This document shows, one piece after another, positions 1 to 64,000 of a stretch of 64,000 bases of DNA (position 1 is the first letter of the stretch; each line of letters starts with the position of its first letter). The stretch is from Solirubrum puertoriconensis (lineage in GTDB: Bacteria > Bacteroidota > Bacteroidia > Cytophagales > Hymenobacteraceae): NCBI RefSeq assembly GCF_001483135.1, contig NZ_LNAL01000006.1, positions 682,003 to 746,002 on the forward strand, given 5' to 3'. A model generated the notes under the pieces. It saw only the letters and a program-made list of their open reading frames with translations, did not search any database and was not told the origin of the DNA. A program made the position numbers and the translations under genes.

Positions 1-340
1 GCCTTACAAACGCGAAACCGTGGAAAGCGAAGGCGTGGATACGGTGTTCTTTAAAGTAGGCGGCTCAAAGATTGAACTGCTAGGTGGCACCACGCCCGAA
101 AGCGCTATTACCAAGTTTGTGGCCAAGAAGGGGGAAGGTATTCACCACGTGGCGTTTGAAGTGAGCGACATCAGGGCTGAGATGCAGCGCCTGCGCGAAG
201 CGGGGTTTACGTTGCTAAACGAGCAGCCCAAACGCGGCGCCGATAACAAGCTGGTGTGCTTTGTGCACCCCAAGAGCGCACACGGCGTATTGGTAGAGCT
301 CTGCCAGGAAATTACCTCTTCGGATCTGGAGGTCGACTAA
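1..340 (+). CDS. mce: Methylmalonyl-CoA epimerase, C-terminal part (5' end outside window)
   Basis: The open frame enters from the left edge (reading from base 2) and ends at 340, so only the last ~112 residues are present and the true start is not visible. The enzyme interconverts (R)- and (S)-methylmalonyl-CoA in propionate, odd-chain fatty acid and branched amino acid breakdown, in the cytoplasm. The fragment carries the second half of the glyoxalase/VOC fold: YKRETVESEGVDTVFF near the start, then EGIHHVAFEV, whose first His is a usual metal ligand, and GVLVELCQE at the end with the Glu ligand. The family is about 135 residues, so roughly 20-25 are missing. The next gene starts 8 bp after its stop, suggesting co-transcription. 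Confidence 0.9.
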   Translation, partial: PYKRETVESEGVDTVFFKVGGSKIELLGGTTPESAITKFVAKKGEGIHHVAFEVSDIRAEMQRLREAGFTLLNEQPKRGADNKLVCFVHPKSAHGVLVELCQEITSSDLEVD

Positions 341-348
341 CTTCTTTT

Positions 349-924
349 ATGAACTACTTTCAACAGGAGGTTGAAGCAGCCGTGGATGCGCTGCTGATGC
401 AGCTGGTCATTTTGTACCCCTCCGATACGGTATGGGGGATTGGTTGCGATGCGGAGGTGCCCCGAGCGGTTGAGAAAGTGCATAAACTAAAGCAACGACC
501 AGGCGAAAAAGGCTGTATTATATTGGTAGCCGACGAAGCTATGTTTGCTCGCTACGCCGAGCAAGTGCCCGACAACCTAGGCCAACTGCTAGCCGAGCAG
601 CAGCGCCCTACTACTTACGTGGTGAAGGGCAGCCGCTTGGTGGCGCCCAACCTTCTGGCTGCCGACGGTACCATTGGCCTGCGCGTGGTGCGCGGCGACG
701 AGTTTACCCACAAAGTGGTGCGGCGGCTAGGCCACGGACTGGTCTCTACCTCCGCGAACATCAGTGGGCAACCCACGCCGGCTATTTACAAGGAAATTGA
801 CCCTGCCATTGTGCGCGGAGTCGACCATGTGGTAAACTGGCGGCAAGACGACGAAAAGCGCTCGGAACCCTCACGCATAGTACGTGTACTGGCCAATGGT
901 TCGCTCGAGTTGTTACGCGATTAG
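349..924 (+). CDS. L-threonylcarbamoyladenylate synthase (Sua5/YciO/YrdC family)
   Basis: 191 residues from ATG 349. The open frame extends upstream to 256 inside mce, but ATG 349 gives the normal family N-terminus 8 bp after the mce stop. Family members make threonylcarbamoyl-AMP from Thr, bicarbonate and ATP, the first step of the t6A37 modification of ANN-decoding tRNAs, in the cytoplasm. Visible signatures are YPSDTVWGIG (residues 23-32), KQRPGEKG just after it, and STSANISG (about 134-141), which form the nucleotide and threonine pocket. It is the short single-domain form without the extra Sua5 domain. YciO-like paralogues of unclear role share these motifs, so tsaC/ywlC is not assigned with certainty. 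Confidence 0.85.
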   Translation: MNYFQQEVEAAVDALLMQLVILYPSDTVWGIGCDAEVPRAVEKVHKLKQRPGEKGCIILVADEAMFARYAEQVPDNLGQLLAEQQRPTTYVVKGSRLVAPNLLAADGTIGLRVVRGDEFTHKVVRRLGHGLVSTSANISGQPTPAIYKEIDPAIVRGVDHVVNWRQDDEKRSEPSRIVRVLANGSLELLRD

Positions 925-1362
925 GACTCGGCTACAGCAGCATGCGCATAGTTTCATAGCTATGCCTTGAGCAAAAATGCTTCTCACCGTTAGCAACGCT
1001 GACCGTTGGAATTGCGGGGCAGAGCACGTACAGGCGGCAGGTGCGTACTTGCAATTAGTCTCCTTTGCACTTCAGCATAGGTATTAAGCCCACCAACAGC
1101 GTCGCTACGCGCAAACCGAACAGCAAACGGACGAGGAAGGCTGCTTCACAAAAAGTCAAACGGCACTGATGAGGGAAGGCTAGGATCATCTCACACGTGT
1201 TTTGAACCGACCCGTGCAGGCACACAGCACTCTAGCGCTTGCTTTAACTGCCTGAAGTCGAAACGTACAAGCCGCCGGATGGATTGCAATGCAAGCCCGA
1301 TAACAAGCGGCCCTATAGAGCAGGGGTATGGTTGCTAAACCGGCGTTGCCGAACTTTGCGGC
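925..1362. other. Intergenic region without a supported gene
   Basis: About 440 bp between the Sua5-family gene and the CCA-adding-enzyme gene. Only short uncorroborated frames occur in it. Just before the next start there is GAACTTTG (1351-1358), one mismatch from the Bacteroidota -7 element TAnnTTTG, only 4 nt ahead of the ATG at 1363. If used, it would give a nearly leaderless mRNA. I see no convincing terminator after 924. Confidence 0.5.
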
Positions 1363-2814
1363 ATGAAACACCCCCAGTTACCCGACCTTTTTTTGTTTCG
1401 CACCATAGCCGAAGCGGCTCAGGAACTGGGCTACCCAGCATTTGTAATCGGCGGTTACGTGCGCGACCTAGCGCTGGAGCGCCCCAGCAAAGATGTGGAC
1501 GTGGTGTGCGTGGGCGATGGGATTACCCTGGCGCAAGCGGTCGGCCGTAAGTTACCCAACCGCCCCCGCGTAACCGTGTTCAAGAACTTTGGCACGGCCA
1601 TGTTGCCCACGCCCGAAATAGTGCTGGAGTTTGTGGGTGCCCGCAAAGAAAGCTACCGGGCCGAATCGCGCAAACCGGAGGTGCAGGCCGGAACCCTCGA
1701 GGAAGACTTGGCTCGCCGCGACTTCACCATCAATGCCCTAGGCCTGAGCCTGAACGCCGACGACTTCGGTACGCTCGTTGACCGCTATAACGGCATACAG
1801 GACCTGCAGGATAAGATTATCCGCACGCCGCTCGATCCGGATATCACTTTTTCCGACGACCCATTGCGCATGATGCGGGCCGTTCGGTTTGCCACGCAGT
1901 TAAACTTCGACATCGACCCCGATACTTTTGATGCCATCGGTCGAAATAAGGAACGCATCAAGATTGTATCGCAGGAGCGGATTACCGACGAGCTGAACAA
2001 GATTATCATGGCGCCGAAGCCGAGCTACGGCTTCAAGCTGCTGTTTGCTAGCGGCCTGCTGCAGCTCATTTTTCCGAAGATGGCAGCGTTGTACGGGGTG
2101 GAACGCCGTGGACAGCACGCACACAAAGACAATTTTTACCACACGCTGCAGGTGCTCGACAACGTGGTAGCTGCCGGTGCCGACTTGTGGCTCCGTTGGG
2201 CTGCCATTCTGCACGACATTGCCAAGCCGCCCACCAAACGCTTCGACCCCAAAGTTGGGTGGACGTTTCATGGGCACGAGGACAAAGGTGCCCGGTGGGT
2301 GCCCGGCATCTTCGCGGATTTGAAGCTGCCCCTAGGTGAGGAAATGCGCATGGTGCAAAAGTTGGTAAAACTGCACCTGCGCCCCATTGCGCTGGTAAAG
2401 GAAACCGTAACCGGCTCGGCCGTGCGCCGCCTGTTGTTTGAAGCCGGCGACGATATCGACCGCCTGATGACGTTGTGCCGCGCCGACATCACCAGCAAAG
2501 ACCACCAGCGTGTGGCCCGCTACTTGCGCAATTTCGAGCGGGTGGAGGAGAAGCTGAAGGAGGTAGAGGAAAAAGACCACCTGCGCAACTTCAAGCCCGT
2601 GATTACCGGCGAGGTAATCATGCAAACCTTTGGCCTCTCGCCCTCCAAAGCCGTGGGCGAGCTGAAGGATGCTGTGCTGGAGGCTATTCTTGATGGACAG
2701 GTGCGCAACGAGTTTGCCGAAGCGTACGCACTGCTACTCGAGCTTGGGCGCCGCAAAGGCCTCGAACCCAAATCGACCGACGCTGCGGGGGCTCCTGCGG
2801 TACCCTTGCCATGA
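1363..2814 (+). CDS. cca: CCA tRNA nucleotidyltransferase/poly(A) polymerase family protein with HD domain
   Basis: 483 residues. It is a class II polymerase-beta-type nucleotidyltransferase that probably adds or repairs the 3' CCA of tRNAs; poly(A) polymerases share the fold and cannot be excluded by eye. The head domain shows GGYVRD (30-35), the metal-binding DVD (44-46), and RRDFTINAL (about 117-125), the template-reading motif. DDPLRMMRAVRFA follows in the neck. A C-terminal HD domain is present (ILHDIAKPP, H284-D285) with later His residues, as in bacterial CCA enzymes with phosphohydrolase activity. The tRNA-Lys gene in this window does not encode CCA, consistent with a need for this enzyme. 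A strong terminator follows. Confidence 0.92.
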   Translation: MKHPQLPDLFLFRTIAEAAQELGYPAFVIGGYVRDLALERPSKDVDVVCVGDGITLAQAVGRKLPNRPRVTVFKNFGTAMLPTPEIVLEFVGARKESYRAESRKPEVQAGTLEEDLARRDFTINALGLSLNADDFGTLVDRYNGIQDLQDKIIRTPLDPDITFSDDPLRMMRAVRFATQLNFDIDPDTFDAIGRNKERIKIVSQERITDELNKIIMAPKPSYGFKLLFASGLLQLIFPKMAALYGVERRGQHAHKDNFYHTLQVLDNVVAAGADLWLRWAAILHDIAKPPTKRFDPKVGWTFHGHEDKGARWVPGIFADLKLPLGEEMRMVQKLVKLHLRPIALVKETVTGSAVRRLLFEAGDDIDRLMTLCRADITSKDHQRVARYLRNFERVEEKLKEVEEKDHLRNFKPVITGEVIMQTFGLSPSKAVGELKDAVLEAILDGQVRNEFAEAYALLLELGRRKGLEPKSTDAAGAPAVPLP

Positions 2815-3132: not shown

Positions 3133-5727
3133 TTACTCCTGAACGCGGGATACCTTGGAAGCACCCGATTTGCTGTTGCGCACGTTGGAGGGGTTGCCGC
3201 TGTAAGCTACCTGGCTGGCTCCGGAAACATCGGTGCGTAGCTGCCGAACCACTGCTAGGCGGGCTTTGCTTACACCCGTTAGCTCCACCTCGGCGTTGTT
3301 TACCGGAAACTCGCTGGCTTGCACCTGGCAAGCGCCGCTGCCTTCGAGGCGCAGTTGGTCGGCTTGGCCCGTCAGCGACGATTTGCAAGCGCCGGCCAAA
3401 TCGAGCGACAGTGCCTTGCAGGTGCCGGCGAAGCGCAGGTGGCTGGCACCTGCTTGCTCCACATTCAGGGTATTCAGGTCGTTGAAGCCCGTAGCTTCAG
3501 CCTTCACGGCACCGGCTAGCTCGAGGCTGCTTAGCGTGGGCAGGGTTACTTCTACCAGCACTTCGTCGCCATCGTTGCGGCGCCAGTTGCCGAAGAGGTT
3601 GCTGCGGCGGGGACGTACCACTAACTCGTCGCCGTTGCGATGTACATCCAACTGGTTTAGCTCGCGGTCGGTGCCGTAGGCTTGCACCTGGTACTGGCCG
3701 CCTTGGCGCAGCACCACGTGGTAGGCGCCGTTCACTTCTACTTTGCTAAAATTGGCCTCGTTGTAGCTGCGGCGGGCGTCGCCATAATCGGCGGGGTCGG
3801 TCGAGAACTCATCCACGTCGCCTAGGTCGACTTCGATGTTCACATCCTCGTCGTCCGTGTCTACATCAATGCGCACGCCGTCGCTGTTGAACTCGCCTTC
3901 GTAGCCTTCCTCGTCTTCGCCCTCGGGCTGTGGGAAATCTTCGGCAGAGCAGTCGATGCACTCAAGCTGATTGCCGCGCAGGCGGTAGAGGTGCTTCGAC
4001 GCATCCTCGGGGCGCTGATCGTTCAGGAAGTTGTAATCGTCGAGCAAATGGGCAAAGTCGCGCGTGATACGGAACTGCTTGTTGCGGGGCAGGCGCAGGG
4101 TTACGTCGAGCTCCTGGTCGCGGAAGATGGCACCCGGGCGGAACGAGAAGCGGTTATCGAGCACCACGCTCGAATCGCGCAGCACGGCACGGTAGGCAAT
4201 GGAGTTACGCGCGGTGTTCGTTGCGTCTTCCAGGGTGCGGCCGTGGGCGCGGGCTTCTTGCGTCATCACGATCGTGTTTCCGCTATCTGCCGGTGCAAAT
4301 AGGATTTCGGGCTGCATATTCCAGTCGTAATCCAGCTCGCGGGCGTCGAGCGTAATGGTGTTGCCAGCCAACGTACCTAGGGTGCGGTTAGTGGTGTAGC
4401 TGCCTTCTTCCTGAAACTCCTGCGAGAGGCGCACGCCACCGGCAATGGAACCCACAATACCCAGCATCCAAAGGCCCAGCAATAGGAGCGTAAGCGTACG
4501 GTTCAGCAACCAGCGGCGCACCAGCAGGCCAACGCCCGAGAACAGCAGCAGCAACACCGGAATACCAGCCGCCAGGAAACCGCTCACCACAAACCACCAC
4601 GGCACACCGGCCAGCACGGCAAAGGCCGGGGCATCGCCCAGCTGAATGTTTTGCGACTCGGGCAACAGACCAATGGCCACACCAGCCACAATCAGCAGGC
4701 CCATGAGCAGGCCAAAACCAATCAGGATAAACATCAGGCCTACGAATACGCGCACTACCGTGCCCAATACCCGGGCTACCGGCCGAATGGCGCGGCCCAG
4801 CTCCTCAATAAAAGCGCCTACGGGGCGATTACTGACGGGCGTAGTGCCTTGGTTGCGCAGGCTTTGCTCGAGGCCCGAAAGGGTTACGGCTTCGCCGCGC
4901 ATCTGGGCTTTCTGGGATAGGGTGCGCGCTGGCGGCACCACCATCCACAGAATCAGGTACAGCAATAGGCCCGTGCCACCCAGGAAGATGCTAAGCACAA
5001 ATACGATGCGCAGAATAGCTACCTCGATGCCCATGTAGGCGGCCAAACCAGCGGCTACACCGCCAATCGAGCCACTATCAGTGTCGCGGAAGAGTTTGCG
5101 CGTCACGTCATCGTCAGGCATGGGGCGGTCATCGAAGCGCTTGGGCAGCGCAATCCAGAGCACCACGTAGGTGAGCAGGCTAATGGCTGGCAGAGCACCT
5201 AGGATATCGCCGATGATGGGCGAGAAAAGCGTGCCGATAAAAATAAGGCGCACCCACAGCGGGTTGATGTTGAAGTAGCGGGCCAAACCGGCTGCCACAC
5301 CCGCTACGCGGCGGTTCGTCATGTCGCGGTAGAGGCGGCGGGGTTCTTCAACCACCGTAGGAGCGGGCGCCGTGGCGGTGCTAGTGCCAGCGTAGGCGCC
5401 ACCACCTAGGGGCTGGCCGTAGCTAGCGGTATCCGCTACGTCGTCGTCATCGTCGAGCTGGCCATCCTGCTGAAAGTCCTGCACGCGGCCCATTTTCGCC
5501 ACCACGGCTTCCACGTCTTCGAACGTGATAACCTGCTTGGTGCTGGAGAGGCGGGCGGCAAAGATTTCGGCAATGCGTCCTTCGATATCGGCCACAATTT
5601 CCTCGTGTCCGCGGTAAGTACTGAAGTACGCCTTCACGTCCTGCAGGTAGCGCTGGAGTACTTCGTAGCCGTCTTCCTCAATGTGGAAGATCAGGCCCTG
5701 CAGATTGATGCTGATATTCTTTTTCAT
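3133..5727 (-). CDS. PspC-domain membrane protein with C-terminal DUF2807 (head-GIN) adhesin-like domain
   Basis: 864 residues. The order is: an N-terminal cytosolic segment (about 1-95, beginning MKKNISINLQG); two PspC-like units, one near 130-190 (RDMTNRRVAGVAAGLARYF) and one near 205-265 (FRDTDSGSIGGVAAGLAAYM), each with hydrophobic helices; several further membrane segments to about 430; a beta-rich region; a very acidic linker (about 600-650, rich in D and E); and a repetitive C-terminal beta-solenoid (about 660-860, with recurring GAS/GAC turns) matching the putative autotransporter adhesin domain. PspC proteins sense or respond to envelope stress in other bacteria. The specific role here is unknown. 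It is 29 bp downstream of the padR gene and is probably its main target. Confidence 0.88.
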   Translation of the reverse strand: MKKNISINLQGLIFHIEEDGYEVLQRYLQDVKAYFSTYRGHEEIVADIEGRIAEIFAARLSSTKQVITFEDVEAVVAKMGRVQDFQQDGQLDDDDDVADTASYGQPLGGGAYAGTSTATAPAPTVVEEPRRLYRDMTNRRVAGVAAGLARYFNINPLWVRLIFIGTLFSPIIGDILGALPAISLLTYVVLWIALPKRFDDRPMPDDDVTRKLFRDTDSGSIGGVAAGLAAYMGIEVAILRIVFVLSIFLGGTGLLLYLILWMVVPPARTLSQKAQMRGEAVTLSGLEQSLRNQGTTPVSNRPVGAFIEELGRAIRPVARVLGTVVRVFVGLMFILIGFGLLMGLLIVAGVAIGLLPESQNIQLGDAPAFAVLAGVPWWFVVSGFLAAGIPVLLLLFSGVGLLVRRWLLNRTLTLLLLGLWMLGIVGSIAGGVRLSQEFQEEGSYTTNRTLGTLAGNTITLDARELDYDWNMQPEILFAPADSGNTIVMTQEARAHGRTLEDATNTARNSIAYRAVLRDSSVVLDNRFSFRPGAIFRDQELDVTLRLPRNKQFRITRDFAHLLDDYNFLNDQRPEDASKHLYRLRGNQLECIDCSAEDFPQPEGEDEEGYEGEFNSDGVRIDVDTDDEDVNIEVDLGDVDEFSTDPADYGDARRSYNEANFSKVEVNGAYHVVLRQGGQYQVQAYGTDRELNQLDVHRNGDELVVRPRRSNLFGNWRRNDGDEVLVEVTLPTLSSLELAGAVKAEATGFNDLNTLNVEQAGASHLRFAGTCKALSLDLAGACKSSLTGQADQLRLEGSGACQVQASEFPVNNAEVELTGVSKARLAVVRQLRTDVSGASQVAYSGNPSNVRNSKSGASKVSRVQE

Positions 5728-5756
5728 CGCAGTGCTGCAACTGTAGGGGTGGTGAG

Positions 5757-6131
5757 TCAGATGGAGGCGCCGGCGGGCGCGACGCTGGCAGAGGAGTTGC
5801 CGTTGGGGTTGGAGCGGATGATCTGGATCGAGTCCTCAATCTCCTCCCACGTTAGGCGCAACTCGTGCAAGAACTGCTGCCCCACCTCGGTAAGGGTATA
5901 GTACTTGCGGGGTGGTCCACTGCTCGATTCCTTCCAGGTATAATCGAGCAGGCCGGCATTCTTCAGGCGGGTTAGCAGGGGGTACAGCGTACCCTCCACC
6001 ACAATCATGCGGGCTTGGGTTAGCTCCTCCAGCATGTCGGAGGCATACACCTCGCCCCGCGCAATGATTTCCAGGATGCAGAATTCCAGAATGCCCTTCC
6101 GCATCTGCACTTGGGTGTTTTCGACTTTCAT
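5757..6131 (-). CDS. PadR-family transcriptional regulator
   Basis: 124 residues from ATG at 6131 (MKVENTQVQMRKG). The frame continues upstream to 6239, but that stretch contains the promoter and is not PadR-like. It is a winged-helix DNA-binding protein: the wing region EGTLYPLLTRLKNAGLL and the following RKYYTLTEVGQ are the classic PadR signature, and the C-terminal helix that follows is the usual dimer arm. It heads the operon with the PspC gene, a pairing common in Bacteroidota. An imperfect palindrome over its -33 box (6179-6203) suggests autoregulation. The inducing signal cannot be read from the sequence. Confidence 0.9.
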   Translation of the reverse strand: MKVENTQVQMRKGILEFCILEIIARGEVYASDMLEELTQARMIVVEGTLYPLLTRLKNAGLLDYTWKESSSGPPRKYYTLTEVGQQFLHELRLTWEEIEDSIQIIRSNPNGNSSASVAPAGASI

Positions 6132-6165
6132 AGGCTTTGCGGGCAGTAGTCGGTGAAGTATGGTA

Positions 6166-6203
6166 CAAATATAAAAGCAGGTACTTTGTAAAGCAAGGTA
6201 CTT
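6166..6203 (-). promoter_or_regulatory. Promoter and probable PadR operator of the padR-pspC operon
   Basis: On the minus strand, TTG (6194-6196 as CAA), a 20-nt spacer, then TATATTTG (6166-6173 as CAAATATA) matches the Bacteroidota -33/-7 consensus. The start codon is about 35 nt downstream. An imperfect inverted repeat AGGTACTTTG - TAAAG - CAAGGTACTT (6179-6203, 8 of 10 positions symmetric) covers the -33 box and most of the spacer, where a repressor would act. Assignment to PadR is inferred from position. Confidence 0.7.
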
Positions 6204-6486
6204 GGTTGAAATAATTTTTGTTTCAGAATATCCCAACAATCATTTAGTTGATTGACAAAGCGTTGATGAATCAGCCGTGAGCTATGCTTATAGTAATCAG
6301 CGGCTGATTGTCGCCCGAGGGGCTGATGCAAACCAGCTGCCCCCGAGACTTCGTACCCTCATGTGGGTTTCCGCTAAAGCTAGGCCCCTGCATAAAGCTG
6401 AGGCAAATGAGCTGCCGCGTGCTGCACTATTAATAAGTAACTTGCGTTGTGAAAGCTCGTTCGTAACCGGGTGTTTTCGTTACTCT

Positions 6487-7660: not shown

Positions 7661-10600
7661 ATGAAGAACCGATACGCACCTCGCATGTGGCGGTGGAGCA
7701 TATTGCTGGCAGTACTCCTGATGGGGCTGGCCCAATCAGTTGGGGCACAAACCCGGCAGTACGGCAACGAGTGGATCAACCACAGCCAGACGTATTACAA
7801 AATCAAAATCATCAAGGACGGCATCTACCGCCTCGATCAGGCCTACCTCTCACGGCTTGGTCTGAACGGGGTAGAGCCCCGGCGCCTGCAGTTGTGGCGG
7901 CGCGGGCAGGAGGTAGCCATGTACGGCGGCGGCAACCAGGCACAGCTTGATGCTACTACTTACCTCGAGTTCTTCGGCCAGCGCAACGACGGCAAACTCG
8001 ACCGCGACATGTACAAAACGGCTGCTGAGCAGCCGCACCAGCTCTACAGCCTATTTACCGATACGGCAGCGTACTTCCTTACCTGGTCGCAGGCTACCAC
8101 GGGCAAGCGCATGGCCGAGCCGGCAGTTACGGCCAGCGGCCACCACAACAACTGGCTGCAGCCGCGCCTACTAATTGATAACGGCGACTACCACTATGGC
8201 CAAACCGATGCGCAATTAGCTTGGATGCCCTGGGCCGACAGCGGCGAGGGTTTCCTAGGCGGCGCGATTGGCAGCAGCTGGACTTACCAACTCGACGGCA
8301 TTGGCCGCCGCTCGGCGCAGGGTGCCATGCCATGGGTAGAGGTGCTGTTGGTAGGCGCTTCGCCTTCGATGCACAACACCCTAATATCGGCTGTGGCAGG
8401 GGGCAACGGTGCCGAACGCGTGCTCACCTCTACACCTGTTAACTATGGCCCTTACGCTGTACGAAAAGTGCAGTACCAACTGCAGCGCAGCGACATTGGC
8501 GCCAATGGTCGGGTGGGAATCAAAGTAGCCGTTAGCAACCCTACAACCCCCATTACCGACAAGTTTAGGGTTGGCTACATCCGGGTGGTGCACCCGCAAA
8601 CGGTTACGTGGCAGGCGGGGCAGGCAGCCCTGCAAGTCCTGAACGACTCTACCTTGGCCGAGCCGGCCAGCTACCAGCTCGATAGCATTTCGGCCTCGGT
8701 AGTTGGCTACGATGTAACCGACCCCGCCAACGTGCAACGGATTGCCGGCGCTGGTACTAGCAACTCGCGCGTGTTCACGTTCCCATCGGCGGTTGGCCGC
8801 ACGCGCCAGTTGCTACTGGCCGATGCAGCGCAGGCCGAAGTACCCGCGCCAGCCGTGCGTGTGCGTTTTCGCCCCATCTCGCCCAGCGCCCATAATTTCT
8901 TAATTGTAAGCAGTGGAGCACTGATGCGCCCGGCAGGCAACGTAGCCAACCCAGTGCGCGAGTACGCCAACTACCGCGCGTCAAACTCCGGTGGGCGCTT
9001 CGACACCCTGGTAGTCACCAGCGACTTGCTCTACGACCAGTTTCACTACGGCGAACGGTCGCCGCTGGCAGTGCGGCGCTTTGCGCAATATATGCTCACG
9101 GCGCCGGTAGCCAATCGCTACTTGTTGCTGCTGGGCAAAGGCGTAATGATAACCGAAGGCTGGGGCGGTACCTTCTACCGCAAAGCCTCTACGGCTGCTC
9201 GGGCCACATTCCCGGATTTAGTGCCAGCCAGTACCCGCGGCGGTTCGGACATTTTCTTTACCGCCGATTGGCAAAACGACTCTTACTTCCCGCAAATACC
9301 CACGGGGCGTTTAGCTGCCCAAACTTCTGCCGACGTCCTCGGCTACCTAAACAAGCTGAAGGACCACGAAGCCCTAGGTGTTGAGCCGTGGCGCAAGAAC
9401 GTGCTGCACCTAGGGGGCGGCGTCCGGCAGAACGAGTTCGATCAGTTCCATGGCTACCTGCGTCGATATCAAAGCCGCGCCGAAGCGCCGCTGTTCGGGG
9501 CTAACGTTGAGAGCATCTTCCGCAGCAACTTAGGGGCGTACCCTGTTGAAACCGACATTGCGCCTAAGCTCAATCAGGGTGTTTCGCTGATTACCTACTT
9601 CGGGCACGGCTCCACAACCTACCTCGATCTGAACCCCAAGGACATTACGCTCGCCAGCAGTGGTTACGCCAATAAGGGTAAATACCCCGTATTCATGGCT
9701 TTTGGCTGTGCAGTAGGCAACAACTACACCCCTTATGGCTCCTTCGGCGAAACCTGGGTATTGGCACCCGAAAAAGGTGCTGTGGGTTTTATGGCCACCT
9801 CTGACTTTGCCGTCGACAACGAGCTGAACGATTACGCCGACCGCCTGTACTTGTTGATGTTTAACGATCCGCAGTGGTACGGCAAGCCGCTTACGGTTAT
9901 TCAGGCCGAGGTGAACAAGCGCTTAATGGCTATTCCGCAGTACACGAGCAGCCGTTATGCCGTGAGCATGATGATGAACACCACGTGGCAGGGCGACCCG
10001 GCGCTGTCGTTGTTCGCGCCGCCAAAGCCGGATTACGCCGCCAACAGTGCGCAAATACTGCCGCTCGATCCGGGCCCGGTGTTGGCTTCGTCGCAGCGGT
10101 TCAACTTGCAAATTACCGCAAGCAACTTCGGCAAATTCATTTCCGATGATGTAAAGGTGACGGTAGAGCGCCAGGTTGGATCAACGATTACGCGCACCTC
10201 CAAAACCTTTGCCGGCTGGCGCAACAACGCCGTGCTCGACTTTGAGCTGACGAATACCGGCAACGTGTTTGGCCTCAATACCTTCACGGTACGGATCGAT
10301 GACCCCAATGCAATCGACGAGCTAAACGAAAACAACAACTCGGTCACCACCACGTTCAGCTTCCTGCAAGGCGGGGTAACGGCGCTCAACCCGCACAACT
10401 TTGCCATTGTGGGCAAGCAGAACGTGCGCTTGGTGGCGCAAAGCAACTTGCCACAGGCCCAGCTGCGCACCTACGAGTTCCAGCTCGACACGGTAGCTAC
10501 TTTCAACTCACCCTTTTTGCGCAATAATTCGGTGCAAGCAACGGATGTGGTGGAGTGGCGCCCCAACCTGCCGGCACCTAGTGCGCCGCGCGATTCGGTG

Positions 10601-12742
10601 GTCTACTACTGGCGCGTACGTTTCGGGGCCAACCAAGGCCTCGACGAAAGCTGGGCAACCAACTCGTTCCGCTACATCAACAATAGCCCCGGGGGGTGGT
10701 CGCAAAGCCACTACGGGCAAATGGCCTCGAACCAGAAAACCGGCTTGGTGCAGGATGCTCCATCGGGCCGCTGGCAATTTGAGGAGCGCACCCGGCAGGT
10801 GCAGTTGAAAACCGCCGGTGGCGGCAGCGGTGGCAACACCTTCCGCCCGGGCTACGGCGTACTCACCGACAACATCTCTACCCAAACCGATAACTGTGGC
10901 TCTATCCGTACGGGTACGCCCAATATCATTGCCGCTGTGTACGATGGCCGTACGCTTAAGCAACTCAACAACATGGGCGGGGCCTACTTGCTTTGCGGCC
11001 AGAACGGTGCTCCGCTGTACCACTTCTACGCCGATGGCAGCGACAACATCAACACGGCTAGCGGGCAGGCAAAGCTGCTGCAGTTTCTGCGCGATGTACC
11101 AGCCGGGCATTATGTAGCGTTGGTAAGCATGAATACCGTGCGCTTCGGCAGCATGGATGCGGCCCTGAAAAACGAATTGGAAGCCATGGGTTCGCGGCTA
11201 ATCAAGCAAGCTCAGGACGGCGACCCGCTGGTAATGATGCTACGCAAAGGTTTCCCCGGCCAAGTGCAGGAGCGTACGTTTGATGCTGCCAGCACTACAC
11301 CGCGCCAGAATCAGGAAATCAGCCTAGGTGCCGCCGTAAATGCGCGCGCAGGCACTGGTACGGTGGTGAGCACGCGCGTTGGCCCCGCACAACAGTGGCA
11401 AACACTTTACCACACCATCAAGAAAACCGATGCTGCTGATGCGTACACGCTGCGCTTGGTAGGCTACGACGCCCAGAACAACCGCACCGTGCTGGTGCCC
11501 AGTGTTACCAATTTGGCTCATTCGCTGTCGGGTGTTAGCGCCCAGCAGTACCCGTACCTGCAACTTGAGGCGGTCCTCATCGACTCGGTCAACCGTACCG
11601 CTCCGCAGCTTAAGCAGTGGCTGGTAACCTACACGCCGCTGCCCGAAGGCGTGGTGCGCCGCGACCATCCGTCGTTGCCGGCCAATGTGTACGCCACCGC
11701 CAAGCTGAACGCCGACGCCGCCAGTTCGGGCTTCCTTGATATCCCGGTGAAGTTCGAGAACGTATCGGCTGTTGATTTCCCGGAGCGCCTGTGGGCCAAA
11801 GCTACCGTGCGCGAAACCGCCGCCAATGGGCAAAGCAAAGAAGTGGAGCTGCAGTCGGCCCGCATCCTGAAGTCCGATTCGGTGGCCACTTATGTATTCC
11901 GCCTCGATGTGCGCACGTTCAAAGGCGAAGGCGCCGTGCGAATTCAGGTGAACTCGCGCCAGGTGCCCGAGCAGTATTACTTCAACAACGAGCTAAACCT
12001 GACCTTCCAGGCACCCAATACTGCGGTACCGCCCGTGCTCGATGTGGCCTTCGATGGCGTGCACATCCTGAACGGCGACATTGTATCGGCCCGCCCCGAA
12101 ATCCTGGTTGATGTGAAGTACGAGGACAAGCGCCGCCCCATCGACGACCCAAGCAAAGTGCAGGTGTTCCTGACGCGCCCCAACCAGGCGCCGCAACAGG
12201 TTTCGATGACGGATGCTTCGCTGATTCGGTTTGCGCCCGATGCGGCCTCGGGCCGCACGCGCGTGTACTACACACCCGGCACCTTGGCCGATGGGGTGTA
12301 CAAGCTGGAGGTGCAAGCCCGCGACATGGCCGATAACCAATCCGGCGCGCAGCGTTATGCCGTGAACTTCGAGGTAATCAACACCTCGAGCATCACCAAT
12401 ATCTTCCCGTATCCGAACCCCGTTACCAGCCGGGCGCGCTTTGTGTTTACGCTTACGGGCAGCGAGCTGCCGCGCAACATGAAGATTCAGATCCTGACGC
12501 TCTCGGGAAAGGTGGTGCGCGAAATCATGCAGGCCGAACTAGGCCCGCTGCACATCGGCAACAACATCACCGAGTATGCCTGGGATGGCACCGACCAGTA
12601 CGGCGATAAGCTGGCCAACGGTACGTACCTCTACCGCGTGGTGATGGACGACCCGCAAAACAAATTCGAGCACCGCACCACCAACTCCAAGGCCGAGCAA
12701 GCCTTCAAGAAGGGGTGGGGCAAGCTGGTGCTGCTGCGTTAA
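7661..12742 (+). CDS. C25-family (gingipain-like) cysteine peptidase, probable T9SS sortase PorU2
   Basis: 1693 residues. A signal peptide (about 1-30, ending VGAQ) is followed by a PorU-type N-terminal domain (YYKIKIIKDGIYRLDQAYLS). The peptidase C25 core spans about 430-790, with the catalytic His in YFGHGST (H649) and nucleophile Cys in AFGCAVGN (C683). A CARDB-like domain follows (DELNENNNS, about 890), then Ig-like domains and a C-terminal FlgD-like domain (YPNPVTSRARF ... DQYGDKLANGTYLYRV). PorU removes the CTD of T9SS cargo and attaches it to anionic LPS. This longer form resembles what databases call PorU2, whose role is not settled. It lies in the same direction as, and 61 bp after, the PorV/PorQ-like gene. 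Confidence 0.85.
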   Translation: MKNRYAPRMWRWSILLAVLLMGLAQSVGAQTRQYGNEWINHSQTYYKIKIIKDGIYRLDQAYLSRLGLNGVEPRRLQLWRRGQEVAMYGGGNQAQLDATTYLEFFGQRNDGKLDRDMYKTAAEQPHQLYSLFTDTAAYFLTWSQATTGKRMAEPAVTASGHHNNWLQPRLLIDNGDYHYGQTDAQLAWMPWADSGEGFLGGAIGSSWTYQLDGIGRRSAQGAMPWVEVLLVGASPSMHNTLISAVAGGNGAERVLTSTPVNYGPYAVRKVQYQLQRSDIGANGRVGIKVAVSNPTTPITDKFRVGYIRVVHPQTVTWQAGQAALQVLNDSTLAEPASYQLDSISASVVGYDVTDPANVQRIAGAGTSNSRVFTFPSAVGRTRQLLLADAAQAEVPAPAVRVRFRPISPSAHNFLIVSSGALMRPAGNVANPVREYANYRASNSGGRFDTLVVTSDLLYDQFHYGERSPLAVRRFAQYMLTAPVANRYLLLLGKGVMITEGWGGTFYRKASTAARATFPDLVPASTRGGSDIFFTADWQNDSYFPQIPTGRLAAQTSADVLGYLNKLKDHEALGVEPWRKNVLHLGGGVRQNEFDQFHGYLRRYQSRAEAPLFGANVESIFRSNLGAYPVETDIAPKLNQGVSLITYFGHGSTTYLDLNPKDITLASSGYANKGKYPVFMAFGCAVGNNYTPYGSFGETWVLAPEKGAVGFMATSDFAVDNELNDYADRLYLLMFNDPQWYGKPLTVIQAEVNKRLMAIPQYTSSRYAVSMMMNTTWQGDPALSLFAPPKPDYAANSAQILPLDPGPVLASSQRFNLQITASNFGKFISDDVKVTVERQVGSTITRTSKTFAGWRNNAVLDFELTNTGNVFGLNTFTVRIDDPNAIDELNENNNSVTTTFSFLQGGVTALNPHNFAIVGKQNVRLVAQSNLPQAQLRTYEFQLDTVATFNSPFLRNNSVQATDVVEWRPNLPAPSAPRDSVVYYWRVRFGANQGLDESWATNSFRYINNSPGGWSQSHYGQMASNQKTGLVQDAPSGRWQFEERTRQVQLKTAGGGSGGNTFRPGYGVLTDNISTQTDNCGSIRTGTPNIIAAVYDGRTLKQLNNMGGAYLLCGQNGAPLYHFYADGSDNINTASGQAKLLQFLRDVPAGHYVALVSMNTVRFGSMDAALKNELEAMGSRLIKQAQDGDPLVMMLRKGFPGQVQERTFDAASTTPRQNQEISLGAAVNARAGTGTVVSTRVGPAQQWQTLYHTIKKTDAADAYTLRLVGYDAQNNRTVLVPSVTNLAHSLSGVSAQQYPYLQLEAVLIDSVNRTAPQLKQWLVTYTPLPEGVVRRDHPSLPANVYATAKLNADAASSGFLDIPVKFENVSAVDFPERLWAKATVRETAANGQSKEVELQSARILKSDSVATYVFRLDVRTFKGEGAVRIQVNSRQVPEQYYFNNELNLTFQAPNTAVPPVLDVAFDGVHILNGDIVSARPEILVDVKYEDKRRPIDDPSKVQVFLTRPNQAPQQVSMTDASLIRFAPDAASGRTRVYYTPGTLADGVYKLEVQARDMADNQSGAQRYAVNFEVINTSSITNIFPYPNPVTSRARFVFTLTGSELPRNMKIQILTLSGKVVREIMQAELGPLHIGNNITEYAWDGTDQYGDKLANGTYLYRVVMDDPQNKFEHRTTNSKAEQAFKKGWGKLVLLR

Positions 12743-18383: not shown

Positions 18384-18423
18384 AGCAAAAGGGGGGCTGC
18401 CCATAGGCAGCCCCCCTTTTGCT
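18384..18423. terminator. Intrinsic terminator between convergent genes
   Basis: 18-bp perfect stem (18384-18401 with 18406-18423) with a CATA loop, containing G6/C6 and flanked by A4 and T4, so it can work both ways. It separates the small membrane protein gene from the convergent M23 peptidase gene. Confidence 0.9.
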
Positions 18424-22345: not shown

Positions 22346-22359
22346 GTTGGGAACAAGCC

Positions 22360-22403
22360 AAAAGCCGCGGCCCGGATCAAGGCTGATCCGGGCCGCGGCT
22401 TTT
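22360..22403. terminator. Bidirectional intrinsic terminator
   Basis: 20-bp perfect stem (22360-22379 with 22384-22403) with an AGGC loop, very GC-rich and flanked by A4 and T4. It lies 14 bp after the M3 peptidase stop and ahead of a convergent gene. Confidence 0.92.
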
Positions 22404-22438
22404 GTAAGCGCACGGGGCAGAACTGGCGCGGCAGCTAC

Positions 22439-25923: not shown

Positions 25924-26922
25924 TTAGGCCAGAGGCCGCACGTGTTTGGCGGCTTGCTGCTTGGCCTGCAAAGCCCGGCGAACCCAGGCTCCGTTTTCTT
26001 CGGCGGCGCGGCGCACCGCCAAGCGTTCTTTGTTGCAGGGGCCGTCGCCGTTAATCACGCGGCGTAGCTCGTCCCAATCCGGCTCGGTGTATTCCCACTT
26101 GCCGGTTTCTTCGTTCTTGCGCAGCTTGGGGTCGGGAATGGTAAGGCCGATTTCCAAGATTTTCGGCACATACATGTCGAGAAACTGCTGGCGGCAATCG
26201 TCGTTCGAGGCCATCTTCACCTTCCAGCGCATCAGAATTTCGGTGTGCTGGCTCATCTTATCGGCCGGCCCGAAGAACGTCATGATAGGCGGCCACCAAC
26301 GGTTCAGTGCCTCTTGCATCATGCGACGCTGCGTGGGCGTGCCGGTGGCCATGTGCACCACGGCATCGTGGCCGTACTTCAGGTGGAACGACTCCTCGGC
26401 GCAAATCCGCTCCAGGGCGCGGCAGTAGGGGCCGTACGAGCCTTTGGCGTTGGCCATCTGGTTTACGATGGCGCCCGCGTCGATCAGCCACGAAATCACG
26501 TTCGAGTCGGCCCAGGTTGGCGTGGGGTAGTTAAAGACGTTAGAGTACTTCGACTTGCCGTTGATCAGGTCCGTAATCATTTCCTCGCGCGTCTTACCTA
26601 GGGTTTCGGCCGCCGAGTACAGCAGCTGGGCGTGGCCCACCTCATCCTGCACTTTGGCCATTTGGGCCATTTTGCGGCGGAAACCCGGCGCGCGGGTAAT
26701 CCAAGTACCCTCCGGCAACGAACCGATGATTTCGGAGTGTGCGTGCTGCTCAATCATCCGAATGAGCTGCTTGCGGTACAGAGCCGGCATGTAGTCGTCG
26801 GGCTCGATTTTCTCGCCGCGGGCAATACGGGCCTCAAACTCGGCCAGCAGTTGCGGGTCTTCGTTTTCGAGGCCAGTCGGAGCCTGCGCCGGAATATCGT
26901 GGGTGCTGACGGAACCGTACAT
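25924..26922 (-). CDS. paaA: Phenylacetyl-CoA epoxidase catalytic subunit PaaA
   Basis: 332 residues. PaaA is the diiron oxygenase that converts phenylacetyl-CoA to its ring-1,2-epoxide, committing the aromatic ring to breakdown. Diiron ligands are visible in [21 protein letters not shown] and [12 protein letters not shown]. The N-terminus (about 24-45) carries the usual [13 protein letters not shown]. The C-terminal [17 protein letters not shown] and [12 protein letters not shown] are also typical. It is 30 bp downstream of the tetR gene, so expression is tied to that promoter. Confidence 0.97.
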
Positions 26923-28880: not shown

Positions 28881-28922
28881 CAATGAAAAAGCCCGCGGCA
28901 GCTGCCGCGGGCTTTTTCATTG
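28881..28922. terminator. 42-bp perfect palindrome terminator after thiL
   Basis: Perfect, loopless inverted repeat with 21-bp arms (28881-28901 and 28902-28922). The core GCCCGCGGCAG is GC-rich and the edges carry A5 and T5, so it can end transcripts from both sides. It separates thiL from a convergent hypothetical gene. Confidence 0.9.
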
Positions 28923-38015: not shown

Positions 38016-38046
38016 ATAGTGCCGAAGAGAGAAGCGGAAAAAGTAT

Positions 38047-38078
38047 AGGCGGCCGCACACGGAGCCGTGCGGCCGCCT
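38047..38078 (-). terminator. Hairpin between the two surface-protein genes
   Basis: 12-bp perfect GC-rich stem (38047-38058 with 38067-38078), 8-nt loop. On the minus strand it is followed by TATACTTTTT. It starts 8 nt after the stop of the upstream gene (38086) and probably ends or attenuates its transcript before the next gene starts at 38015. Confidence 0.65.
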
Positions 38079-38085
38079 ACGCAGG

Positions 38086-41405: not shown

Positions 41406-41447
41406 CCTAGGTGTCCTGCCTTTCCCGTAAGGCAAGCAGCACCTAGG
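41406..41447. repeat. Inverted repeat bounded by two CCTAGG hexamers
   Basis: CCTAGGTG (41406-41413) pairs with CACCTAGG (41440-41447), and an inner CTGCCTT pairs with AAGGCA. It lies 14 bp after the stop of the minus-strand gene at 41462, so it could end that transcript. No T-run follows. Confidence 0.5.
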
Positions 41448-42328: not shown

Positions 42329-42330
42329 AC

Positions 42331-50450: not shown

Positions 50451-50506
50451 CCCCAACGCACACGCGGCGCCCCTAGGTACCTAGGGGCGCCGCGTGTGCG
50501 TTGGGG
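50451..50506. repeat. 56-bp perfect palindrome between convergent genes
   Basis: Two perfect 28-bp arms (50451-50478 and 50479-50506) meet with no spacer. The centre is CCTAGGTACCTAGG, two CCTAGG hexamers. It sits between the permease gene (ends 50436) and the convergent universal stress gene (ends 50518). No T-run follows on either side, so it is not a normal intrinsic terminator, although an RNA hairpin would be very stable. Confidence 0.95.
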
Positions 50507-51708: not shown

Positions 51709-52429
51709 GCGAAATACTCTTGGTGAGTAGAAACTGCCGAGTATCAAAACGTTGCCCGGCGGACGGCGCAACAGGTGCAAGCGCGGCAACCCAGGTGCCA
51801 AAGCCGTACGCTGCGTGCAAGTTGAAACTAAGTGCGGCGAGCCCGAATGACGGCCGTCAATGACTTAGCTGATAAATATCATATTAGAAGTGGGTTGCAC
51901 CATATCCTGTTCAGGCAAGCGTACCCCTGGAAGCATGGTTCCTGAGGCTACAATTAGGCCAAGGCCTAGGTGCCGCTGGCTGTGGTGCAGGCCGGCAACA
52001 CCTAGGGGTGGGAGGGGCTAGTACACAAACGGGCCGTTGTGCGACGAGCGGTACTGATGCCAGCCAATGGCCGCCAACATCAGCACCAGCAGGTAAAACC
52101 AGAGGGTGGGCGTAACCATAACTGCTAGTACAAGGCAAGTGGTTGATCTTCAGAAAAACGGCTGCTCAGCCATCCTTAATATGCTACAGCGCAACGCCGA
52201 AAGCAATGATGATGATCAATGCGACAAAGCTTAGGCAGCAGGGCCGATGTGCTTTTTAACGCAAGCGCCACCGTACCAAAATCGGGTTGGATGGTACGCC
52301 GCTAGCTGGCTTTCTGCTCGGTCTTAATCAGGCAAGGGAAATGCAGGTATGATGCTCGGAATAAGCAGTATACAGATGTTTCGCATCCTAAAATTTCCGA
52401 TCTTCTTAGGTGTTACCAACCCCAACGCC
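51709..52429. other. Gene-poor intergenic region
   Basis: About 720 bp holding only a possible 33-codon membrane peptide (52018-52119, minus strand) and two CCTAGG sites (51965, 52001). The strand from about 52130 to 52300 is A+T-richer than its surroundings. I see no RNA gene. The exact promoter of the DUF5996 gene is not clear. Confidence 0.4.
52018..52119 (-). CDS. Possible 33-residue membrane peptide
   Basis: From ATG 52119 to TAG 52018, with one hydrophobic segment (LWFYLLVLMLAAIGW, about 6-20) and a polar end (HQYRSSHNGPFVY). The layout, a single transmembrane helix with a short basic-aromatic tail, is like many small membrane proteins, but the frame is very short and unproven. Confidence 0.4.
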   Translation of the reverse strand: MVTPTLWFYLLVLMLAAIGWHQYRSSHNGPFVY

Positions 52430-55450: not shown

Positions 55451-55490
55451 AAACACAAACGCCTAGGTCGATACCTAGGCGTTTGTGTTT
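55451..55490. terminator. Terminator after the first lacI-like gene
   Basis: 18-bp perfect stem (55451-55468 with 55473-55490), CGAT loop, ending in GTGTTT. Both arms hold a CCTAGG (55462 and 55474). It lies 34 bp after the regulator's stop. Confidence 0.8.
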
Positions 55491-63120: not shown

Positions 63121-63570
63121 CTAGGAACGCAGCATATGAATGTGCTCTATGCCATCTTCCAGGTAAATGTCATCGAGCTGCTCGAAGCCGAAGCTAGTGT
63201 AGAAGGCGCGCAAGTAGTACTGCGCCCCGATTTTTATGGCCTGCGGGCCAAACAACTGTTCGCACTGGGTAATGGCCTGTTGCATCAGCTCGCGGCCTAG
63301 GCCGTAGCGCCGGTACTTTGGGCTCACTACCACGCGCCCGATGCTGGCCTGCTCGTAGGAGCGGCCCGCCTCAAACAAGCGGGCGTAGGCCGCCAACTGG
63401 CCTTCGGGCGAATAACCCAGCAGGTGGTAAGCTTGCTGATCCATGCCGTCGATGTCCTGGAATGCGCAGGTTTGCTCCACCACAAATACCTCGCTGCGCA
63501 GTTGCAGCAGGTCGTACAGTTCGGCTAGGGTAAGCTCGGCAAAGGGCTTGGTAATCCAGGTAAGCGTCAT
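63121..63570 (-). CDS. elaA: GNAT-family N-acetyltransferase, ElaA-like
   Basis: 149 residues from ATG 63570 (MTLTWITKPFAELTL); the frame open to 63663 includes the promoter. ElaA-type members have the motif LLQLRSEVFVVEQTCAFQDIDGMDQQAYH (about 19-47) and the acetyl-CoA loop IGRVVVSPKYRRYGLGRELM (about 77-96) with the Q/RxxGxG/A signature. The acetylated target is unknown. Length is right for the family. Confidence 0.92.
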   Translation of the reverse strand: MTLTWITKPFAELTLAELYDLLQLRSEVFVVEQTCAFQDIDGMDQQAYHLLGYSPEGQLAAYARLFEAGRSYEQASIGRVVVSPKYRRYGLGRELMQQAITQCEQLFGPQAIKIGAQYYLRAFYTSFGFEQLDDIYLEDGIEHIHMLRS

Positions 63571-63588
63571 GGCAAGAAAATGTGAGCC

Positions 63589-63596
63589 CAAAGGTA
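63589..63596 (-). promoter_or_regulatory. -7 promoter element for elaA
   Basis: CAAAGGTA on the plus strand reads TACCTTTG on the minus strand, an exact TAnnTTTG, 19 nt from the start at 63570. A -33 box at the correct distance is not clear. Confidence 0.55.
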
Positions 63597-63685
63597 GGTG
63601 GCCAGCCGTGGTTTTGTCACGCTGGCTACCTGCGGCACTACATTCTCTTTTGCTCAACCGCACGAAGCGCCGTGTTTGGGCTTAG

Positions 63686-64000
63686 CTATTGCACGAGCAA
63701 GCTTCGGGTAAGCCGCTGCCCATCGATGCTGAGCTGGCACACGTACATGCCGGCTGCCAGCCCCGCCCGTTCGAAACGTATGGCGTGGCTGCCTGCGGGG
63801 CGGGCGGCATCGAGCAGCACGGCTACTTCGCGACCTGCCAGGTCGAGCACCGAAAGGCGCACATGGGCGTTGCGGCTAAGCGAAAAAGGCACCACCGCGC
63901 CATCGGCCGCAATGGGGTTGGGGTAGGCGGCCTGGAGCTGCATGCCTGCCTCGATGCTGCGGCGGTTGCTGGTTATGACCGAGGTAGTTTGCACGGGGTC
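63686..64000 (-). CDS. C-terminal part of a T9SS type A cargo protein (5' end outside window)
   Basis: At least 104 residues; the frame runs off the right edge. The C-terminal type A sorting domain is clear: AAYPNPIAADGAVVPFSL, NAHVRLSVLDLAGREVAVLLDA and AGMYVCQLSIDGQRLTRSLLVQ. It would be secreted by T9SS and processed by a PorU-type enzyme. The rest of the protein is unseen, so the biological function is open. Confidence 0.9.
   Translation of the reverse strand, partial: DPVQTTSVITSNRRSIEAGMQLQAAYPNPIAADGAVVPFSLSRNAHVRLSVLDLAGREVAVLLDAARPAGSHAIRFERAGLAAGMYVCQLSIDGQRLTRSLLVQ

What the first reader, a model, noticed from the sequence alone, without database searches (positions are those of the whole stretch)
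1..64000. Highly iterated palindrome CCTAGG across the whole window
Reading every line, I count about 90 CCTAGG sites (e.g. 576, 1737, 2331, 2839, 5198, 9373, 12875, 18431, 22225, 30121, 37807, 45511, 50472, 55462, 61331, 63296). At about 60% GC, roughly 20 are expected by chance in 64 kb, and CTAG tetramers are usually avoided in bacteria. Other CTAGG contexts (GCTAGG, TCTAGG, ACTAGG) total only about 20. Sites occur in genes on both strands and between genes. This resembles the HIP1 octamer (GCGATCGC) of cyanobacteria, suggesting a modification, repair or chromosome-organisation signal, or a very active mutational/gene-conversion bias.
Basis: partly seen in the sequence, partly recalled or inferred. 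Interest (0 to 1): 0.85.

Follow-up and report, generated by a model that had tools for sequence, protein, structure and literature searches.

The report
Lineage-specific repeated DNA words in Hymenobacteraceae
This bacterium carries the same short DNA word thousands of times across its chromosome, and relatives carry different words or none, as if each lineage stamped its own DNA with a password.

Summary
The window has 92 CCTAGG (12-22 expected by Markov orders 0-3). The whole genome has 6212, against 136 of the reversed control. Synonymous-codon shuffles of the window's genes give 7.5 against 60 seen.

The palindrome is only the core: in this clade the word is asymmetric, ACCTAGG followed by G, C or A. 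It is on or off within the genus: 3 of 8 genomes carry 5325-6212 CCTAGG, 5 carry 123-249. Other lineages of the family carry other words: ACCTAG(G/C)T, CCCTAGG(G/C), TGGCCTA(C/G), CTACCCC, and in Pontibacter AGGTATAG, AACTATA(G/A) or AAGTAT(A/G).

Copies arise by many kinds of base change, in genes largely synonymous and including transversions. That argues against one mutational chemistry and for a force favouring the word itself. I judge uptake-signal dialects, as in Neisseriaceae but without type IV pili, the most likely function (about 0.38). A methylation/repair (HIP1-like), structural or Chi-like role remains open. No driver gene was found: two methyltransferase classes, a pilus ATPase, ComEC, DUF5689 and an AddB-like nuclease do not track the words.

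The parts
1..64000 (.). 92 CCTAGG cores. Forward words ACCTAGG+V (43), core starts: 576, 2839, 4376, 5198, 5405, 9409, 12875, 14548, 15500, 17308, 24450, 24864, 26597, 27422, 28338, 28930, 29596, 30934, 31320, 33266, 33762, 34846, 36154, 36478, 37033, 37807, 41442, 44061, 44671, 44962, 45511, 45638, 47191, 50480, 52001, 54675, 55474, 56077, 57171, 58602, 60343, 60858, 61697. Reverse words B+CCTAGGT (35): 2331, 3821, 7470, 7623, 9373, 11323, 13390, 13883, 18842, 24008, 24157, 24771, 27681, 30121, 31126, 33362, 34297, 35160, 40638, 41406, 45316, 45855, 47082, 48090, 49749, 50472, 50669, 51469, 51965, 53361, 53597, 55462, 59907, 60318, 61331. Neither or both flanks (14): 1737, 8254, 15031, 18431, 18680, 22225, 31833, 41624, 42990, 49626, 54187, 57138, 59641, 63296.
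   Evidence: 61 in predicted genes, 29 intergenic, 2 at edges
50451..50506 (.). Perfect 56-bp palindrome at a convergent gene end with the word in both arms (CCCCTAGGT-ACCTAGGGG), an inverted pair as in DUS terminators
55451..55490 (.). Second convergent-end hairpin, two 18-bp arms and a 4-base loop, with the word in both arms (CGCCTAGGT..ACCTAGGCG)
41406..41447 (.). Outward-pointing inverted pair of words in a convergent gap (cores 36 bp apart)
51965..52006 (.). Outward-pointing inverted pair of words, intergenic, cores 36 bp apart
25924..26922 (-). PaaA-like gene (TIGR02156), used only as the anchor for fetching 80 named relatives; not part of the system

Best explanation
The words are a lineage-specific, genome-wide iterated signal. 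Shown: one short word per lineage sampled, about 1-3 copies per kb on both strands, rare in sister lineages; gained by whatever base change makes the word; kept more often than matched hexamers in the window's clade; densest where sequence is least constrained; sparse in the few accessory-looking stretches sampled. Inferred: a protein reads the word and DNA that carries it is favoured, so the word spreads by molecular drive. The most likely reader is a self-DNA receptor of natural transformation of the pilus-independent kind described in Riemerella: fragments carrying the word are taken up and recombined preferentially, the word accumulates, and the word drifts with the receptor, giving dialects. 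Lineages without a word would have lost the specificity or the competence.
For: Cross-dialect table: each word is 8-28 per 10 kb in its own lineage (2-6 in clade B, which splits between two forms) and mostly 0-3 elsewhere. Pontibacter dialects at one locus in 27 of 29 loci; the same words at other places in genus g6, probably Pontibacter, e.g. AACTATA 6-13 times per 3.5 kb in 5 of 7 loci. On/off within a genus; rich genomes in four parts of an rpoB tree. Of 41 coding phase-2 sites with a single difference from word-less G001, 38 differ at the Leu wobble base, 18 of them transversions; nnC-CTN-GGN uses CTA in 72, 69 and 50% (G000, G004, G007) against 1 of 185 in G001. G000 sites kept 72.8% in G004 (n=305) and 61.6% in G007 (n=294) against 51.8 and 54.0% for same-composition hexamers. 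In word-poor genomes 0 of 146 (G001), 0 of 45 (G005), 2 of 28 (G003) and 0 of 20 (G006) aligned sites are CCTAGG. Inverted pairs: 25 of 30 close intergenic pairs in clade A, over three related genomes; two hairpins at convergent ends in the window, as for DUS (PMC3630211, passages). A Bacteroidota member prefers its own DNA (PMC7965970 section 16), and Riemerella transforms without pilus homologues (PMC8459023). ComEC in 30 of 30 genomes.
Against: No receptor or driver gene found. DUS/USS uptake as known uses type IV pili (recalled; PMC7965970 passage); the pilus/secretion ATPase PF00437 is over cut-off in 1 of 30 genomes and unmatched in the 13 CCTAGG-rich ones. ComEC is equally present in word-poor genomes. 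DUF5689, the family of a Riemerella transformation protein, does not track the words, and sits beside a SusD-like and a phosphoesterase-like gene in the one locus I read. I saw no report of transformation in these bacteria, but did not search for that specifically. Dialect does not strictly follow phylogeny: G088 and G104 share clade A's word although they sit beside G072, which has another. Pontibacter densities (mean 1.9-3.1 per kb) exceed what fragment uptake would seem to need and are not evenly spaced (variance/mean 1.0-2.1); their close pairs are mostly tandem in two of three dialects. The clade B word is palindromic. Keeping in G007 is only modestly above control.
Confidence: 0.38

Rival explanations
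1. HIP1-like: the word contains the site of an orphan DNA methyltransferase, and a methylation-directed mismatch-repair step preserves mutations that create it (Elhai's model), or the methylated site has an epigenetic or repair role.
For: Same density, same alternation of words between relatives, palindromic core CCTAGG in clades A-C and palindromic whole words in B and in G072; Elhai ties alternate HIPs to cognate methyltransferases (abstract).
Against: C5 methyltransferases not found in 9 of 13 rich genomes; PF01555 enzymes not found in 8 of 13 rich genomes and commoner in poor ones, 8 of 11. The clade A and D words and the Pontibacter words AGGTATAG and AAGTAT(A/G) are asymmetric. Other methyltransferase classes were not searched.
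Confidence: 0.22
2. Structural signal: the word is a binding site for an abundant nucleoid or chromosome-segregation protein, favoured for chromosome packing, and changes as that protein changes.
For: No strand preference, present in genes and between genes, density up to about 3 per kb in Pontibacter, slight evenness in clade A (variance/mean 0.77-0.85 per kb).
Against: No candidate protein was sought or found; thousands of sites would have to be replaced at each change of word; four sister genomes of the same genus show no word in the 40-310 kb sampled.
Confidence: 0.18
3. Chi-like: the word regulates AddAB/RecBCD-type double-strand break processing and marks self DNA for repair.
For: An AddB-like nuclease (PF12705; open frame 962-1171 aa in 29 genomes, 430 in G109) in 30 of 30 genomes; Chi words differ between bacteria (recalled); asymmetric octamer.
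Against: No orientation bias in 326-340 kb of three genomes (192/199, 217/214, 190/195), while Chi is usually strand-skewed (recalled); AddB-like protein equally present in word-poor genomes; copy number far above known Chi (recalled).
Confidence: 0.12
4. Context-dependent mutation: one mutagenic chemistry (for example deamination of methylated C, or loss of Vsr-type repair) turns precursors into CCTAGG.
For: The commonest single differences from relatives are transitions at the central TA. At hexamer level the one-step precursors CCCAGG/CCTGGG are as common in word-poor genomes (104-135 per 100 kb) as CCTAGG is in rich ones (123-142 per 100 kb).
Against: At octamer level they are not: ACCCAGGG plus ACCTGGGG 2.5-8.7 per 100 kb in word-poor genomes against 67-81 ACCTAGGG in rich ones. 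For ACCTAGGG, 66 of 67 sites differ from G001 at two or more octamer positions, by G-A, C-T, G-T, C-G and other changes. The CTA-to-CTG drift in G007 is coding-only (69 of 96 lost phase-2 sites) while 42 of 54 intergenic sites are kept, so it looks like codon preference.
Confidence: 0.05

Closest known systems
DNA uptake sequence (DUS) dialects of Neisseriaceae
   Same: One abundant short word per lineage, several dialects in one family, some family members without a word, inverted pairs at terminators (PMC3630211 passages), in genes and between them
   Different: Different phylum; no type IV pilus ATPase in the rich genomes, so ComP-type reception is unlikely; words 7-8 bp, partly palindromic; dialect does not strictly follow phylogeny; uptake function untested
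HIP1 and alternate HIPs of cyanobacteria
   Same: Around 0.5-2.5 copies per kb, sporadic loss and replacement by other words, enriched extension around a palindromic core (PMC4390886 sections 7 and 18 part 1)
   Different: Words often asymmetric; no C5 or PF01555 methyltransferase tracks them; the Elhai text does not contain CCTAGG or a word beginning Bacteroid
Uptake signal sequence (USS) of Pasteurellaceae
   Same: Asymmetric 9-bp word at about one per kb, two subtypes (recalled; subtypes also in PMC3630211 passage)
   Different: Depends on type IV pilus machinery (recalled); far fewer variants
Chi sites of RecBCD/AddAB
   Same: Asymmetric 5-8 bp word, varies between bacteria (recalled)
   Different: No strand skew here; higher density; palindromic words in some lineages

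Membership tests
DUS/USS uptake signals | Short word far above expectation throughout the genome, specific to a lineage | tested here: met
   Whole-genome counts for CCTAGG; other words from samples of 12-340 kb
DUS/USS uptake signals | Dialects with a shared core that follow phylogeny | tested here: inconclusive
   Clades A and B are uniform; in clade C, G072 differs from G088 and G104, which share clade A's word. A shared CTA trinucleotide is visible in all words except the AAGTAT(A/G) one, but this was seen after the fact and not tested
DUS/USS uptake signals | Inverted pairs in terminator-like hairpins | tested here: inconclusive
   Clade A yes: 25 of 30 close intergenic pairs inverted, hairpins; Pontibacter close pairs tandem 39 of 55, 44 of 85 and 56 of 74
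DUS/USS uptake signals | Type IV pilus-type uptake machinery with sequence-reading pilin | tested here: not met
   PF00437 over cut-off in 1 of 30, matched in 0 of 13 rich genomes; pilins themselves not searched
DUS/USS uptake signals | Word raises uptake or transformation | not testable with these tools
   needs bench assay
HIP | Palindromic word | tested here: inconclusive
   Core CCTAGG palindromic; clade A word ACCTAGGV not (490 of 563 sites carry it, 17 are ACCTAGGT); clade B word palindromic
HIP | Cognate DNA methyltransferase present when the word is frequent | tested here: inconclusive
   PF00145 in 4 of 13 rich and 6 of 11 poor genomes, PF01555 in 5 of 13 and 8 of 11; PF02086, PF02384, PF07669 and others not searched
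Chi | Orientation bias with replication | tested here: not met
   192/199, 217/214, 190/195 in 326-340 kb of three genomes; replication direction itself was not mapped
Chi | RecBCD/AddAB present | tested here: met
   PF12705 protein in 30 of 30, word-poor genomes included; AddA not searched

The most novel reading that the evidence does not exclude
Hymenobacteraceae (at least Hymenobacter and Pontibacter) use a family of evolving DNA passwords, read by a so far unknown, pilus-independent receptor, to tell self DNA from foreign DNA: a third, independently evolved uptake-signal system and the first in Bacteroidota.
Probability: 0.33. Interest if true: 0.93.

Novelty: new variant of a known kind. 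Interest (0 to 1): 0.86.

Why it matters
Whatever reads these words, one family offers about eight words, word-less sisters and repeated changes between them. That is a natural experiment for two old questions: what drives HIP1-type words, and how sequence-specific uptake signals start and switch. It also gives a concrete, cheap prediction for competence in Bacteroidota, where self-preference has been measured in one species but no signal identified (PMC7965970 section 16). Practically, the words could raise transformation of strains that are hard to modify and they may flag foreign DNA in these genomes.

Tried and rejected
Tried without result: cytosine-5 methyltransferases, PF01555 methyltransferases, type IV pilus/T2SS ATPase, ComEC, DUF5689 (neighbours), AddB-like nuclease: none tracks the words. 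A Vsr-like explanation for the erosion seen in G007 was entertained after and dropped after (coding-only CTA to CTG); Vsr genes were not searched. A 33-bp-spaced outward pair seemed special; counts are small (10 pairs over three related genomes) and I leave it. Even spacing as a general trait was dropped: clade A slightly even, Pontibacter not. The first rpoB tree had rows on the wrong strand and was replaced. Weak candidate words (G-run words in H. roseosalivarius, BT188, qilianensis; AACGCTAT in Adhaeribacter terrigena) are not claimed. The high word scores of L216, L265, L268 and L227 come from repeats clustered in 2-3 kb and were not counted. CCTAGG copies in G041, G137 and G043 are partly a by-product of their own word TGGCCTA(C/G).

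Rows dropped: searches left out three of the 20 G000 loci (one unreadable, two with very few sites: 2 in 12.5 kb and 1 in 20 kb); one search kept all. Searches used only sites aligned without gaps. One search looked at 38 of 80 named loci, at all 80; dialects were read by eye from the top words. In one search I grouped 28 Hymenobacter loci as one control. G104 samples from two small contigs (82 kb, 0.26 per kb) are shown but replaced by a chromosomal 12-kb sample. The word of G129 was not determined (20 kb, 6 sites). A small G007 stretch was not used.

Papers: PMC4390886 outline and abstract, sections 7 and 18 (first part), passages; PMC1939737 passages; PMC3630211 passages; PMC8459023 sections 19, 20 and passages; PMC7965970 section 16 and passages; all others search listings only. 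Ten literature searches showed no report of these words in their listings; the library holds open-licence papers only. Chi facts, AvrII-type enzymes and a 2018 HIP1 selection study are recalled, not read.
Full report
1. The observation. The window holds 92 CCTAGG; all 16 coordinates given are exact. Expectations are 20.3, 13.8, 12.5 and 21.5 by Markov orders 0 to 3, and at orders 1-3 CCTAGG deviates more than any other hexamer. By an order-4 model the excess is only 1.26-fold, as the pentamer CTAGG is itself mostly CCTAGG. Shuffling synonymous codons within the 52 predicted window genes gives 7.5 (sd 2.9, max 15 of 200 shuffles) against 60 observed; the 8556 intergenic bases hold 29 against 2.3. 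My gene calls are a simple codon-usage predictor, so coding/intergenic splits are approximate. Genome-wide there are 6212 in 4.80 Mb, 136 for the reversed control GGATCC.

2. On/off among relatives. Of the 8 genomes held for the genus, G000, G004 and G007 have 6212, 5678 and 5325; the other five have 123-249. Of 204 genomes of the family, 13 have more than 1000 and the next highest have 888 and 876. Of 311 genomes drawn from the rest of the order, the highest is 1349 (with 610 of the control) and none reaches 2000. G001 is Hymenobacter busanensis MA3: 42 of 42 tested 60-mers of the named locus L204 occur in it; Hymenobacter and Pontibacter belong to Hymenobacteraceae.

3. The real word. In 439 kb of G000 (window plus 20 loci), 490 of 563 CCTAGG are ACCTAGG followed by G (243), C (199) or A (48); only 17 are the palindrome ACCTAGGT. 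Information falls to about 0.1 bit just outside these eight bases. ACCTAGGG is 35- to 49-fold above an order-2 model in G000, G004 and G007. Forward and reverse words are equal in number (192/199, 217/214, 190/195; intergenic 59/58, 75/69, 73/68). CCTAGG density is 0.9-1.1 per kb in genes and 2.1-2.5 per kb between genes, highest in convergent gaps (3.1-4.1 per kb).

4. How copies arise. Aligned to G001, none of 146 G000 sites is CCTAGG, and to G005 none of 45; over the window alone G003 shares 2 of 28 and G006 0 of 20. For ACCTAGGG, 66 of 67 aligned sites differ from G001 at two or more positions of the octamer. In 60 of these with longer gapless flanks, three word positions differ in 70, 82 and 48% against 10-38% in the flanks, and the changes towards the word include G to A, C to T, G to T, C to G and others. 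Most coding sites (273 of 294 in G000) read nnC-CTA-GGn, Leu-Gly. In that context CTA is used in 72% (G000, n=379), 69% (G004, n=421), 50% (G007, n=466) and 0.5% (G001, 1 of 185), although it is a minor CTN codon overall (11, 9, 6 and 3%). Of 41 such sites with a single difference from G001, 38 differ at the Leu wobble base, 20 by transition and 18 by transversion. The force thus seems to act on the word, by any route, against codon preference. G000 sites are kept in G004 in 72.8% and in G007 in 61.6%, against 51.8 and 54.0% for other hexamers of the same composition. In G007 coding sites are lost mainly as CTA to CTG (69 of 96 lost phase-2 sites), while 42 of 54 intergenic sites are kept, so the balance with codon preference seems weaker there. 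G001 shows slight avoidance (1 in genes against 8.6 expected).

5. Other lineages, other words. An rpoB tree of 30 genomes places the CCTAGG-rich genomes as A (G000, G004, G007, nested among word-poor genomes), B (G030, G036, G123), C (G072, G088, G104) and D (G041, G043, G129, G137, with the poorer G061 and G087 among them). Over-represented octamers differ: B ACCTAGGT plus ACCTAGCT; G072 CCCTAGGG/CCCTAGGC; G088 and G104 ACCTAGG-G/C/A, like clade A; G041, G137 and G043 TGGCCTA-C/G, of which their CCTAGG excess is partly a by-product; G044, sister to clade C, CTACCCC (21 in 12 kb). The word-poor relatives G001, G005, G003 and G006 (310, 78, 60 and 40 kb sampled) show no word of comparable count; G002 was not sampled. 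From 80 named loci around a PaaA-like gene, 27 of 29 Pontibacter loci carry one of three words: AGGTATAG (11), AACTATA-G/A (5), AAGTAT-A/G (11); P. beigongshangensis and P. qinzhouensis show none. Since these loci are syntenic I looked elsewhere: 3.5-kb loci of seven genomes of genus g6 (probably Pontibacter, not named by any search) around a DUF5689 gene show AACTATA 12, 9, 9, 6 and 13 times in five, AAGTAT(A/G) 8 times in one and AGGTATA 4 times in one, and a g6 rpoB locus shows AAGTAT(A/G) 6 times; eight g5 loci show each word 0-3 times. Outside its lineage each word is mostly 0-3 per 10 kb; exceptions are AAGTAT words in the AACTATA group (7.2), ACCTAGG-V in clade B (2.5-4.1) and CCCTAGG-S in G088 (3.3).

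6. Accessory-looking DNA. A whole 12.5-kb contig of G000 and the first 20 kb of its 259-kb contig hold 2 and 1 sites, whereas 17 other 20-kb samples hold 23-32 each; two small contigs of G104 hold 0.26 per kb. Whether these are plasmids was not tested.

7. Candidate drivers. C5 methyltransferases: 4 of 13 rich and 6 of 11 poor genomes. PF01555: 5 of 13 rich and 8 of 11 poor. PF00437: over cut-off in 1 of 30 genomes, matched in none of the 13 rich ones. ComEC: 30 of 30. DUF5689: over cut-off in 65 of 204 without tracking the words (strong in 3 of 3 of B, 2 of 3 of C, 1 of 4 of D; below cut-off in G000 and G004, no match in G007), next to a SusD-like gene and a phosphoesterase-like gene in the one locus read (names by eye, not by search). 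AddB-like nuclease: 30 of 30. No driver was found.

8. Mechanism. Shown: a lineage-specific word, favoured as such, gained by mixed changes, kept above control, strand-neutral, in inverted pairs in clade A (25 of 30 close intergenic pairs, three related genomes) and in two convergent-end hairpins of the window. Inferred: something reads it. I commit to a self-DNA uptake signal (0.38) because dialects, word-less sisters, inverted pairs and density match Neisseriaceae DUS, and because Bacteroidota transform without pilus homologues (PMC8459023) and R. columbina prefers its own DNA, with no signal reported beyond A/T-rich k-mers (PMC7965970 section 16). Against it: no pilus, no receptor, a word shared by clades A and part of C, Pontibacter densities and tandem pairs. 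HIP1-like methylation/repair (0.22), a structural site (0.18) and Chi (0.12) stay open; a single mutational chemistry (0.05) does not fit the octamer data.

9. Known or new. HIP1 and DUS are known kinds; filing under either is open or fails on a defining feature (methyltransferase; pilus). I found no report of these words in ten searches of an open-licence library. I call it a new variant of a known kind.

Noticed in passing
window 28881-28922, 18384-18423, 22359-22404: Long perfect or near-perfect hairpins at convergent gene ends; the first has partial matches elsewhere in G000 and in G001, G004, G005 and G007, so it looks like a shared family of terminator repeats.
   Followed up: partly
family genomes, control column: GGATCC is almost absent (0-10 copies) from many g4 genomes and present in a hundred or more copies in relatives, as if a BamHI-type restriction system had acted on part of the genus.
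   Followed up: no
window 7661-12742 and 33834-40317: A C25 (gingipain-family) peptidase protein and two PKD proteins with CHU_C or Por secretion tails, type IX secretion cargo by Pfam.
   Followed up: no
L198 (G044:C12:500001-512000): CTACCCC occurs 21 times in 12 kb; 4-5 copies in 3.6-kb loci of G034, G019, G036 and G087 hint at further users of this word.
   Followed up: partly
L210, L214, L218: Spread-out C-run words (CCCCCCAG, GGGGGCAA) in H. roseosalivarius, BT188 and H. qilianensis, possible weak dialects.
   Followed up: no
L216, L265: Dense octamers (ATGAGTGA; CATAACTC) clustered in 2-3 kb, apparently tandem repeats, in two MAG contigs.
   Followed up: no
G000:C5:1-20000 (L064): Only 1 CCTAGG in 20 kb of a 259-kb contig, although G+C is 61%; possible recently acquired replicon or element.
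   Followed up: no
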